DNA of 64,000 bases from Alistipes sp. (GTDB lineage Bacteria; Bacteroidota; Bacteroidia; Bacteroidales; Rikenellaceae). Of this stretch, positions 17,585 to 61,234 are shown piece after piece. The notes under the pieces were generated by a model. That model ran no database searches, was not told where the DNA came from, and saw only the letters and a list, made by a program, of their open reading frames with translations. Within the stretch, counting starts at the first letter, position 1; each line of letters opens with the position of its first letter. The translations under genes were made by a program, and so were the position numbers. Where the stretch lies: NCBI GenBank assembly GCA_031285345.1, contig JAITWI010000055.1, positions 62,001-126,000 of the forward strand, read 5' to 3'.

Positions 17585-19309
17585 ATGAAAAAAATCTTTA
17601 CCCTCGCGCTCGCCGCACTCTCCTTGGGCCTCGCCTCGTGCAGCCCCGAAGACAACAACCCTACGCCGCCCGAACCCGGCAAACCGACTCTCGAAGTTTC
17701 CATCGAGGGGGGGGGTAATTCATTGATAGTCAATGATATGGTCGCAGAGGGCGACGAATACACACTCACCGTGTCGTCGAATCTCGACTGGACGGCCGCC
17801 GGCACCGCCGACGAATGGCTGACCGTCGCTCCCGCCGAGGGCTTTGCCGACGAAGACGCCGAGGGCGACACCGAAACCACGGTCACCATCACCGTCGCCG
17901 CCAACGACAGCGAAGAGACCCGCACCGCCGAGGTTGTCTTCACCACCACGGGCGACGAACCTCTCACCAAGACAGTAACTTTCTCCCAGCTGGCCAAAAC
18001 CGAAGAGGAGCCCGAGCCCGATGAACCGATCGCCATCACCGAGGCGCGTATGGATCACGTGGGCAAAAACGGAAGCTTCAACATCTACGGCCTGATGTTC
18101 CACTTCGACAACCAAGACGGAACCCGCTCCGAGATCCGCCTCGAATTGACGGGCGAAGAGTTCGACGACTTTTTGAACGATGTGCCCGCCGCCGGAACCT
18201 ACGAATACACCGAAAGCTTCGAGGCGCGCGGCCTCGCTCCCTCTTCTTATTTCTATCCCGACGCCGACCTCGACACCGGCTCTTTGGACTACCCCATCGT
18301 CGGCGGTAAGGCCGTCATCGCGGCCGAAGGCGACCAGTACACTATCGAGATGGAACTCTCGGTGGCCGGCGGTACTGAAATCCAGGCAATATACGAAGGC
18401 CCGCTCCGTTCGCACGTATGGCCCGAAGGGGTCGAGGGCGACACCGCGACGACCGACTGGAGCGACGTGACCGCCGAAAAATATCTCGGCCGCAACAACA
18501 TGTGGCGCGTGGCTTTCGAAAACGCCTCCGGAATCTCGGTCGACCTTGTCGTCAACACCGCCGCCGACCTCGAAGAGCTCCCCGTTGGCAACTACGCCAT
18601 GGCTTCGGCAGCCCGCGCGGGTGTGGCCGGAACCGCCGAACCGGCATCCGAACCGAGCCGCGGCAACTTCCAGGGCTGCTGGCTGCGCGGCGACTACGAC
18701 TGGCAGTGGAACCCCGACTTCTCGGCCGACAAAGCCGGACAGTGGGCCATCGCGGGCGAGGGCTTCGTCAACATAACCAAAGAGGATAACGACTACACCA
18801 TCGCCTATGAATTCCGGGACGTCGACGGCAACACCATCTCGGGCAGCTGGACGGGCGAACTCTACGAGGCGCAGGTGGAGGAGTTCGGCATCGAATTCTC
18901 CAACCGCAACTTCAACATATCGGACAACTCTTACGGCGAAGGAACGGCGGGATTGAGCCTGTCTTTCAGCCACTGGGATTCGGCCACTCAATATAGCTAC
19001 ACTCTAAACATAGAGGCTGCATCCACGCTCATGGATTGGAACGACTCCGACGTTATGAATGGACTTACCACCATTCCCGCCGGCAACTACTCCTTCGACG
19101 AGAATTTCGCCGCCAACCATACCCTGGGAACGTTCGGAACGTTCACGGTGAGCGCCTCCGACGATCGTCTAAATTCCCTGTACAACCTCTCCCCCACAGG
19201 CGGTTCGTTCACCGTAACGCACACCGAAGCGGGAATGCTGTTCGAGTTCGACGTGTTGATGAACGACGGTCGCAGGTTCGTATGCGACTGGGAGGGCATG
19301 GCTTGGTAG
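17585..19309 (+). CDS. BACON-domain lipoprotein
   Basis: Lipobox LGLASCS; EYTLTVSSNLDWTAAGTADEWLTVAPAEG... BACON-like; 9-nt G tract at 17707-17715 near N-terminus. Confidence 0.75.
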   Translation: MKKIFTLALAALSLGLASCSPEDNNPTPPEPGKPTLEVSIEGGGNSLIVNDMVAEGDEYTLTVSSNLDWTAAGTADEWLTVAPAEGFADEDAEGDTETTVTITVAANDSEETRTAEVVFTTTGDEPLTKTVTFSQLAKTEEEPEPDEPIAITEARMDHVGKNGSFNIYGLMFHFDNQDGTRSEIRLELTGEEFDDFLNDVPAAGTYEYTESFEARGLAPSSYFYPDADLDTGSLDYPIVGGKAVIAAEGDQYTIEMELSVAGGTEIQAIYEGPLRSHVWPEGVEGDTATTDWSDVTAEKYLGRNNMWRVAFENASGISVDLVVNTAADLEELPVGNYAMASAARAGVAGTAEPASEPSRGNFQGCWLRGDYDWQWNPDFSADKAGQWAIAGEGFVNITKEDNDYTIAYEFRDVDGNTISGSWTGELYEAQVEEFGIEFSNRNFNISDNSYGEGTAGLSLSFSHWDSATQYSYTLNIEAASTLMDWNDSDVMNGLTTIPAGNYSFDENFAANHTLGTFGTFTVSASDDRLNSLYNLSPTGGSFTVTHTEAGMLFEFDVLMNDGRRFVCDWEGMAW

Positions 19310-58322: not shown

Positions 58323-58988
58323 TTAGTCGATTTTGTTATCCATCAGTCCGTCGTCCGGATTGCCGCCCGGCGGATCGAGCTGATATCCCGGATTAATCGG
58401 GTGATTTGGAGGCGTCGGAGCCGTGATCCGTTGACTCCAAAAGAGTCGGAAGAAATTCATTCTCAATCCGGCCGCCGTCGAGGTTAAGCTAAATGTCTCT
58501 TTAAGAGCAAGTTCGATGCTTCTGTAAGTGTCGACTGAAATATTCACGAAGGGACTGTGTCGCGGGAAGATAAAGTATACATCGACGATCTTTCCGGTCG
58601 GAGGATCCACCCGCGCGCCGACAAATATCATCTCCCCGTCAAGGGATTTTCTTTGCGAATTCGTAAACGTGCTTTCGACCAGCCTTTGGAGTTCCCGGGT
58701 GTTGTGGCTTTGATAGCTGGCGTAGTATGGTTCGCGATGCCCGACGATGGCTTCGTCGTACGTCAACGGGGTTCCGTCTTCGTGGCCCCACTCGACGTCG
58801 GTGTGGATGTTGGAGGAGTTGTAGAGTTCAATGTCGCCCAATACGTTATTCGCTAATAAAAAATTACGATACTTGTATGTGTACTCCGATTTTACTACTG
58901 TTCCCGAGATATTTGGATAATGGTTTGTTTGAGCCGAAGCTGTTGCGAGCGCAAACAACACTACCGTTAAAACGATTGATTTTTTCAT
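58323..58988 (-). CDS. secreted hypothetical protein
   Basis: Signal peptide MKKSIVLTVVLFALATASAQ; just downstream of the metallopeptidase-like ORF. Confidence 0.72.
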   Translation of the reverse strand: MKKSIVLTVVLFALATASAQTNHYPNISGTVVKSEYTYKYRNFLLANNVLGDIELYNSSNIHTDVEWGHEDGTPLTYDEAIVGHREPYYASYQSHNTRELQRLVESTFTNSQRKSLDGEMIFVGARVDPPTGKIVDVYFIFPRHSPFVNISVDTYRSIELALKETFSLTSTAAGLRMNFFRLFWSQRITAPTPPNHPINPGYQLDPPGGNPDDGLMDNKID

Positions 58989-58990
58989 GG

Positions 58991-60513
58991 TTAACATCCT
59001 TTACTTAAATGTTGAAGGTTTTTGAAGTTTTCGGTAAACGATCTGTTAGGATCGAATGGAGTCGGGTTCCCATAGCCATGCTCATACACCTGCTGTATTT
59101 GCAAGGCCGTGCTTGTATAAACATGGTTGAATATAGCCTGTCCCGTGGCACTTGAATCTATCAAACCTCCGTTTTTTGAAAGGAATCTATCGGAGAGATA
59201 CACAACCTGCTGATCGTAACTATTACCAGTCAGGCTACCGAAATATCGGTATTCTGCAATGTTGGCTTCAACTTCGCGGTTGGCCGACGATGACCCGAAA
59301 GATCCCGCGCTCTCCTGATAGGCCTGATAGGCGTGGAACATTTCATGAAACAGCGCGCCGGAGTTGTTGAGGTCGGTTATCGTAATGCCGCCATTTCCAA
59401 AGCCTCCGTTGATGAGGGAATTGTCGATCACATTAATATTAAGCGTCCCATCGCCCATTGCGGCGTCGAGGCCGTTGAAAAGGTTGCCGCCCATGCAGTC
59501 GTCGATGATTTTTTTGAGCAGGTTTTCGAGCTTTTTCCAGTCGTCCTCGTCCAATCCGTTGTTGCGAAACAGTTTTTTTGCATTGGGAGCTACCGGGGGC
59601 GGTGGTCCGGGTGTGCCACCGCCTCCGGGGATTATGTCGACGCCGCCACCACCACCTCCCACAACCACATAGTTATCATAATAATAGATATAGACATAGA
59701 GGATATACCCATGCTTCGCCTTGCAGGTGCAGGTAATTGGTTCGGCTATCGTGTCGCCTGGATACGGCCCATTTATGTGGACGCAATCATCTGAGCAATC
59801 GCAGAATTTTAGCCCGTCGACATTCCTCGTCGCCGCACCCGCATCTATGGCCATCGCCACGCTGATGTTCGGATCCGATTCGGCGTGGGCATCGGGGTCG
59901 AAATGCAGAGTGCCTGCAAACTCGCCCCGCTCATACATCCAACCCCATTGGGGTGTGCCGTCGGGCAACGAATAGAGCGTGATGCCCGAGTAGTCGCTCC
60001 CCTCGGGGTCGTTGCCGAGCGTCGTGAGGTCGCTTTCGTAGCCCTCGTTCGGCAAAAAAGTCACCAAAAGGGCGCCGATCGAATCGTTGTCCTTGCGCTC
60101 GGCCAACAGGATTCGAGTAAGTGGAGCCTGCGTAACAAGGCTGACCGTGTCGATCCCGTTTTCAACCAACGTGGTGTAGAGGATTCGACGTGTCAGACGG
60201 GTGGGAACCTCGGTGACGTAGGCCAGTTCGTTCTCCCAAGTCGACGCGCCCGACCAGTCGGGCTCAATGGCGTCCCAAAGTTCGAGTGCCGCCGCCTCCG
60301 CCCTCGTCGTGGGCGAGGTCGCATTGCGATAGATGTTTGGCAGCGCCGGAATGCCGATCTGTTTTTCAAAGAACGCCATTGCTCGCTCAATGCGTTTGTT
60401 TTCAGCTACTTGCGACGGGGGGGGGGGTAAACTTCCTGCGAGCAGCTGTGGACGATGGCTGTCAACCCGAGAACTCCGCAGATCCCGAGGTGGAGCAGTT
60501 TTGCTTTTTTCAT
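58991..60513 (-). pseudogene. putative zinc-metallopeptidase-like lipoprotein, frame-disrupted at an 11-nt poly-C (coding strand) tract; candidate phase-variable gene
   Basis: Signal frame MKKAKLLHLGICGVLGLTAIVHSCSQEVYPPPRRK* (60513..60406); main frame PPPPSQVAENKRIERAMAFFEKQIGIPAL...LFHEMFHAYQAYQESAG...NREVEANIAEYRYFG to 58991. Confidence 0.75.
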
Positions 60514-60643
60514 AAGCGTTAAGATTTAGGTGGTTGGTCTGTTTGCCGACGTGCCGGGTCCCGCGTTGGCGTTGCAATGTAGCAAAAATCCGCGACCACA
60601 ACAAACAAAATGCGCAAAGGCCCTCGCAAGCAGACACAAAAAA

Positions 60644-60716: not shown

Positions 60717-61234
60717 TCAGTGTTCCCACTGAAGATTGCTCGTGTCGAAGGTGATCGTTTTGGTGCCCTCGTTGAAAAAGTTGCACTGGATAAGCGTGGT
60801 GCCGGCCGTCTTCAGGTTTTCGATAAACAGCTGGGCGTCCACGATAAAGATAAGTTCGGAGCTATAATCGGACGGGCTCACGTAGTAATAATATTCGGCC
60901 TCCCGTTCGCCGAAGCGCACCAAAATGGTCTCGCTTCCGACGGCGTAGCTGGGTATGAATTGTCCCTTGTTTTCGGTGATGCTCAACGCAACGCTGTTTT
61001 CGCCGGCGATGTTGCGAACCGTCAGCCATACATTCGTACCGCCCGAATAGGGGAAATTGAACTCGAACTCCTCCTGAGCCATTACTTGAGCAAAAAGTTC
61101 TTGCTGTCGTCCATCGGGTTTGCGGTCTCGCTGTACGACCACCCGGCCTCGGCGGCGCCATCTTTTTTCGATCCGGAGCCGAAGCATCCCACAAGCGTGA
61201 AGGCCACCGCGGCCAAAAGTAAATGTTTCATCAT
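60717..61234 (-). pseudogene. lipoprotein with apparent 1-nt frameshift at a T5 run
   Basis: MMKHLLLAAVAFTLVGCFGSGSKKDGAAEAGWSYSETANPMDDSKNFLLK* then, +1 frame, FAQVMAQEEFEFNFPYSGGTNVWLTVRNIAGENSVALSITENKGQF...NLQWEH. Confidence 0.75.

What the first reader, a model, noticed from the sequence alone, without database searches (positions are those of the whole stretch)
60406..60513. Candidate phase-variable switch: 11-nt poly-G/C tract between a lipoprotein signal and a metallopeptidase-like ORF
Seen directly on the minus strand: ATG at 60513 gives MKKAKLLHLGICGVLGLTAIVHSCSQEVY (good lipoprotein signal), then C11. At length 11 it runs into RRK-stop; the main ORF (PPPPSQVAENKR...) is in another frame. 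A tract of 9 or 12 would fuse signal and body. Slipped-strand mispairing at such tracts is an established ON/OFF mechanism (e.g. Neisseria, Campylobacter). A homopolymer assembly error is the main alternative.
Basis: partly seen in the sequence, partly recalled or inferred. Interest (0 to 1): 0.85.

Follow-up and report, generated by a model that had tools for sequence, protein, structure and literature searches.

The report
Poly-C switch in a lipoprotein gene
A run of 11 Cs sits between the export signal and the body of a probable surface peptidase or toxin in a gut-type bacterium (family Rikenellaceae, order Bacteroidales), and similar repeats sit at the same joint of related and unrelated genes in sister species, so the gene is very probably switched on and off at random by slippage of the repeat.

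Summary
Observation confirmed. C11 lies at 60417-60427 (minus strand). The ATG at 60513 encodes a lipoprotein signal ending in RRK-stop; the 474-aa body is in another frame, and only tract lengths divisible by 3 join the two. The genome is a Rikenellaceae MAG in which G/C tracts >=11 are expected 0.09 times but occur 3 times, all in 5' ends of lipoprotein genes. A species with a 47%-identical body has C12 at the same joint, also out of frame; a third species has no tract and a direct in-frame fusion. Two other lipoprotein peptidase families (C10/streptopain-like and zincin-like) carry G15, G11, G10, C10, G9, C8, C7 or (GA)6 at their 5' ends. Across the three families 11 of 12 repeat-bearing genes are out of frame, against 0 of 5 without repeats (P=0.001), and bodies stay intact. 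Outside Rikenellaceae the pattern is rare. Phase variation by slippage is the best explanation (0.8); switching itself could not be observed, as no reads or isolates were available. The body looks like a polymorphic toxin: constant N-terminal domain, exchangeable C-terminal peptidase-like domain (HEMFHAYQ), and a small secreted DUF5043 protein 2 nt downstream. The mechanism is known; its use in this family was not found in the held literature.

The parts
60511..60513 (-). start codon of the lipoprotein signal
   Evidence: read directly
60406..60513 (-). short frame as assembled (OFF): lipoprotein signal MKKAKLLHLGICGVLGLTAIVHSCSQEVY, then PPPRRK-stop
60417..60427 (-). C11 tract, the proposed slippage switch
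60574..60581 (-). TACATTGC, similar to the Bacteroidales -7 box (TAnnTTTG), with TTG 20 and 23 nt before it; similar boxes precede 8 of 10 such genes
   Evidence: consensus from general knowledge
58991..60415 (-). body frame, 474 aa: N-terminal domain, G/P-rich linker, C-terminal HEMFHAYQ domain
59810..60412 (-). constant N-terminal domain, shared with L014 (49%), L015 (47%) and L018 (38%)
58991..59545 (-). C-terminal peptidase-like domain, motif [HE]ExxHxxQ ... NxExE, shared by about 17 further Rikenellaceae loci on diverged N-terminal parts
58323..58988 (-). small secreted DUF5043 protein, starts 2 nt after the body's stop; candidate immunity protein or inhibitor
17707..17715 (+). G9 in a second lipoprotein gene (MKKIFTLALAALSLGLASCSPEDNN..., BACON domain), in frame; possible weaker member of the same class

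Best explanation
The C11 tract is a contingency (phase-variation) switch. Slipped-strand mispairing during replication adds or removes C residues between the lipoprotein signal and the mature protein. Lengths divisible by 3 give an exported surface lipoprotein; all others, including the assembled 11, end in a short peptide (OFF). The bacterium runs such switches on several lipoprotein genes, mostly peptidase-like. Shown: anatomy, frame, excess over chance, recurrence at the same joint in an ortholog and in two unrelated families, and intact bodies. Inferred: length change in the population, reversibility, and advantage. The switched protein is probably a lipoprotein toxin with a neighbouring immunity protein, or a surface peptidase with its inhibitor (inferred from architecture only).
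For: G/C tracts are far over-represented and concentrated in lipoprotein 5' ends. An ortholog in G008 has C12 at the same joint, OFF; an ortholog in G007 has no tract and a direct fusion. Two other families, C10-peptidase-like and zincin-like, carry G15, G11, G10, C10, G9, C8, C7 or (GA)6 between the start and the body, before the signal in some species and after the lipobox in others. Repeat-bearing genes are OFF in 11 of 12 cases, repeat-free homologs in 0 of 5 (Fisher P=0.001; poly-A case left out, P=0.0014). OFF bodies have no stops, and second codon positions are best conserved (0.58/0.69/0.44 against G008). The signal-plus-tract pattern occurs in 115 (G9) and 100 (C9) of 268 Rikenellaceae genomes, against about 52 and 57 for the reversed control (counted by hand from the tables). 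In a Bacteroidales sample of 149 genomes, nearly all from other families, it occurs in 25, mostly not in signal peptides.
Against: No read-level or strain-level length variation could be examined. Some G tracts in related genomes lie at contig ends and may be sequencing artefacts. A T5-associated frame break in the neighbouring gene (61092-61096) shows that single-base indels, real or erroneous, exist here. MutS and MutL are present, so mismatch repair may slow slippage.
Confidence: 0.8

Rival explanations
1. Assembly or sequencing error: the true tract has an in-frame length, the gene is constitutively on, and the OFF state is a homopolymer miscall.
For: Single draft MAG in 82 contigs; tracts in relatives often lie at contig ends; the neighbouring gene also has a frame break.
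Against: The same out-of-frame state occurs at independent loci in several assemblies with different units, including (GA)6 and C7, which short reads call well. Repeat-free homologs are all in frame. An error cannot create the tract itself.
Confidence: 0.08
2. Transcriptional slippage or programmed ribosomal frameshifting at the tract produces a fixed small share of full-length protein from an 'OFF' gene, without DNA change.
For: Long homopolymers can be slippery for RNA polymerase and ribosomes (general knowledge; PMC3711429); intact bodies despite OFF frames.
Against: No stimulatory RNA structure (z=0.35). Unit (G, C, GA), length and position vary among homologs, sometimes before the signal, which is unlike a conserved recoding site.
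Confidence: 0.08
3. Gene decay: the tract arose by chance and the gene is a recent pseudogene.
For: Out of frame in this assembly; no Pfam or NCBIfam model matches the body.
Against: The 474-aa body has no stop; motif residues are kept; orthologs in two species are OFF yet intact as far as held; the downstream partner is intact.
Confidence: 0.04
4. About what is switched: an ordinary secreted peptidase with a specific inhibitor (DUF5043) used for feeding or host contact, not an antibacterial toxin. (This concerns the cargo and is compatible with the best explanation of the switch.)
For: Other switched genes are peptidases (C10 with Inhibitor_I69 prodomain).
Against: C-terminal domains are exchanged on one N-terminal domain, each with a different small secreted neighbour; downstream genes are often doubled; one locus has a second C-terminal cassette followed by DUF5043 genes.
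Confidence: 0.45

Closest known systems
Poly-G/C contingency loci of Neisseria, Campylobacter and Helicobacter (e.g. PMC6321876, PMC2823697)
   Same: Long G/C tract in the 5' coding part of surface-protein genes; frame-shifting ON/OFF logic; several loci per genome; small genome.
   Different: A Bacteroidales family with MutS and MutL; targets are lipoprotein peptidases or candidate toxins; switching not yet observed.
Phase variation in Bacteroides by DNA invertases (PMC11868660)
   Same: Same order; surface components switched.
   Different: Slippage in coding repeats instead of promoter or gene inversion.
Polymorphic toxin systems (PMC3482391); lipoprotein polymorphic toxins delivered by outer-membrane exchange in myxobacteria (PMC5562445, abstract only)
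   Same: Constant N-terminal part, exchangeable C-terminal domains, adjacent small genes, tandem cassettes; in the myxobacterial case also lipoprotein toxins (from general knowledge).
   Different: Toxicity untested; no known secretion marker; C-terminal domain matches no Pfam or NCBIfam family; phase variation is not mentioned in the held text of PMC3482391.

Membership tests
Simple-sequence-repeat contingency locus | Long mononucleotide repeat within the 5' coding region, beyond chance | tested here: met
Simple-sequence-repeat contingency locus | Unit gain or loss moves the gene between an open and a truncated frame | tested here: met
Simple-sequence-repeat contingency locus | Downstream body kept intact although out of frame | tested here: met
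Simple-sequence-repeat contingency locus | Tract length varies among related genomes | tested here: met
   C11 against C12 against none in orthologs; 7-15 in the two other families; between species only
Simple-sequence-repeat contingency locus | Frequent reversible length change within one population | not testable with these tools
   no reads or isolates of the species held
Polymorphic toxin system | Constant export-competent N-terminal part with exchanged C-terminal domains | tested here: met
   HEMFH domain here, M23 in L014, another domain in L018
Polymorphic toxin system | Small immunity-type gene directly downstream, matched to the C-terminal domain | tested here: met
   DUF5043-like protein after most HEMFH domains, at offset -1 to +14 nt where measured; different proteins after the other C-terminal domains
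Polymorphic toxin system | C-terminal domain belongs to a known toxin family | tested here: not met
   no Pfam, NCBIfam or PDB match
Polymorphic toxin system | Toxicity neutralised by the cognate partner | not testable with these tools
   needs bench work
PVC-metallopeptidase (HExxHxxQ-E) | Signature HExxHxxQ with a downstream Glu | tested here: inconclusive
   HEMFHAYQ ... NxEVE present here, but the first His is Glu in several relatives
PVC-metallopeptidase (HExxHxxQ-E) | Match to a described profile | tested here: not met
   no Pfam match to the body at E<=1
Programmed frameshift site | Conserved slippery site with stimulatory structure | tested here: not met
   no structure above shuffles; unit and position vary

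The most novel reading that the evidence does not exclude
Rikenellaceae carry a slippage-driven switchboard for lipoprotein toxins and peptidases: a new toxin-immunity pair (HEMFHAYQ domain with DUF5043) on an exchangeable-tip lipoprotein whose export is turned on in a random minority of cells, while immunity remains available in the rest.
Probability: 0.35. Interest if true: 0.78.

Novelty: new member of a known kind. Interest (0 to 1): 0.6.

Why it matters
Phase variation by coding repeats is best described in small-genome pathogens; in gut Bacteroidales the reviewed cases are invertase-based (PMC11868660). Here one lineage of the order seems to rely on repeats, at exported proteins, with several independent gains at one joint. 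It is testable at once from existing metagenomes by counting tract lengths. If the protein is a toxin, cells would diversify in attack while possibly keeping immunity.

Tried and rejected
Profile scan of genome contigs: alignment not conserved enough; single-protein scan gave one relative, Alistipes sp. C.6_1. Scan of viral contigs for the tract flank gave no answer. PDB profile search: only chance matches. PADLOC: nothing. Loss of mismatch repair as the cause of the tracts: rejected, MutS and MutL present. RNA structure around the tract: none beyond shuffles. A significant bias towards OFF was considered but not claimed: about 2 in 3 OFF is expected from random lengths, and the sample is small.

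Full report
Observation. The signal frame starts at 60513, has a clear lipobox, meets C11 at 60417-60427 and stops at 60406. The body frame runs from 60415 to 58991 without a stop.

Chance. The window is 64 kb of a 1.72-Mb, 82-contig draft genome (81% complete). In 464 kb of that genome, G/C runs fall about five-fold per added base; the extrapolation predicts 0.48 runs of 10 or more and 0.09 of 11 or more in the whole genome. Observed are 7 and 3. The three longest, 15, 14 and 11, all lie in the first part of lipoprotein genes. Of the four of length 10, one lies between the ATG and the signal of a lipoprotein gene, one in frame inside a long ORF, and two are intergenic.

Homologs. The body's N-terminal domain has orthologs in the same genus: G008 (L015, 47%) with C12 at the same joint and the body again out of frame, and G007 (L014, 49%) with no tract and a direct in-frame fusion of lipoprotein signal to body. 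The latter shows what the ON product looks like. The contig of L015 ends inside the gene, so only its first 139 residues are seen.

Other families. Two unrelated lipoprotein peptidase families in the genus show the same thing. Zincin-like family (HELGH/HEIGH motif): G15 after the lipobox (L012), G11 before the signal (L055), C8 (L200) and C7 (L201), all out of frame; G8 in frame (L195); no repeat and in frame (L194, L202). C10-peptidase family (PF01640): C10 before the signal (L003), G10 (L078), G9 (L216) and a (GA)6 repeat (L222) after the lipobox, all out of frame; no repeat and in frame (L219, L227). L226 of the same family has A8 at its start and is out of frame. In all, repeats go with the OFF state in 11 of 12, no repeat with ON in 5 of 5. 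The repeats differ in unit and place, so they arose more than once. The loci were partly found through their tracts, so the P value is indicative only.

Wider survey. A pattern for ATG, a Cys codon and then G9 or C9 is found in 115 and 100 of 268 genomes of the family (Rikenellaceae; contig identity with Alistipes sp. C.6_1), against about 52 and 57 for reversed controls (hand counts). In a sample of 149 Bacteroidales genomes, one of them Rikenellaceae, it is found in 25, mostly not in signal peptides. The literature library gave no report of repeat-driven phase variation in Alistipes or Rikenellaceae; that library lacks most subscription papers.

What is switched. The body has three parts: an N-terminal domain, a glycine/proline linker and a C-terminal domain with [HE]ExxH(A/V)(Y/F)Q and NxExE, the motif Glu, the second His and the distal residues at 90% or more. 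The first His is Glu in four relatives, so zinc peptidase activity is a guess. The C-terminal domain occurs in about 17 further Rikenellaceae loci. Where it was measured, a small secreted protein starts -1 to +14 nt from its stop; in most loci that protein is DUF5043-like (PF16446), often followed by a second copy. In L014 the C-terminal domain is M23 and in L018 a third one, each with a different small secreted neighbour. In G033 a second C-terminal cassette follows the first gene, with more DUF5043 genes. This is the architecture of polymorphic toxins with immunity genes (PMC3482391), but no member was tested and no known toxin profile matches.

Mechanism. Mismatch repair is present, as in some other phase-variable bacteria (general knowledge), so slippage in long tracts is still expected. 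Promoter-like boxes are kept upstream of 8 of 10 such genes. Recoding at the RNA or ribosome level is not excluded but gets no support. The remaining gap is direct proof of length change in a population.

Verdict. Known mechanism, new place and probably new cargo.

Noticed in passing
window 61232-60720, minus strand: The gene upstream of the switch also has a broken frame: a lipoprotein signal (MMKHLLLAAVAFTLVGC...) ends in a stop after T5 at 61092-61096, while the rest (MAQEEFEFNFPYSGG...) is open in another frame. Assembly indel, decay or another switch cannot be told apart here.
   Followed up: partly
window 17707-17715, plus strand: G9 in frame in a BACON-domain lipoprotein gene; possibly another member of the same class.
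   Followed up: partly
L222 (G005:C32): A (GA)6 dinucleotide repeat takes the place of the homopolymer in a C10-peptidase-like lipoprotein gene whose neighbour of the same family (L216) has G9 there; both are out of frame.
   Followed up: yes
L226 (G005:C20): A8 directly after the ATG of a C10-peptidase-like lipoprotein gene gives MKKN-stop while the signal and body are in another frame.
   Followed up: partly
L006:4210-4219 and neighbours: C10 directly followed by A9 just downstream of what reads like the 4.5S (SRP) RNA gene; intergenic, no explanation.
   Followed up: no
G065, G067, G199, G204, G217, G231, G232, G239: C9 at the signal-peptidase end of exported proteins (e.g. ...TCLITPPPAFAQ) is conserved across species of a large Rikenellaceae genus; in frame in the two examined (L161, L163).
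   Followed up: no
L128:4002-8578 (Alistipes sp. C.6_1): A full gene with the HEMFHAYQ domain is followed by a second C-terminal cassette without signal and by several DUF5043-like genes, like orphan cassettes of polymorphic toxins.
   Followed up: partly
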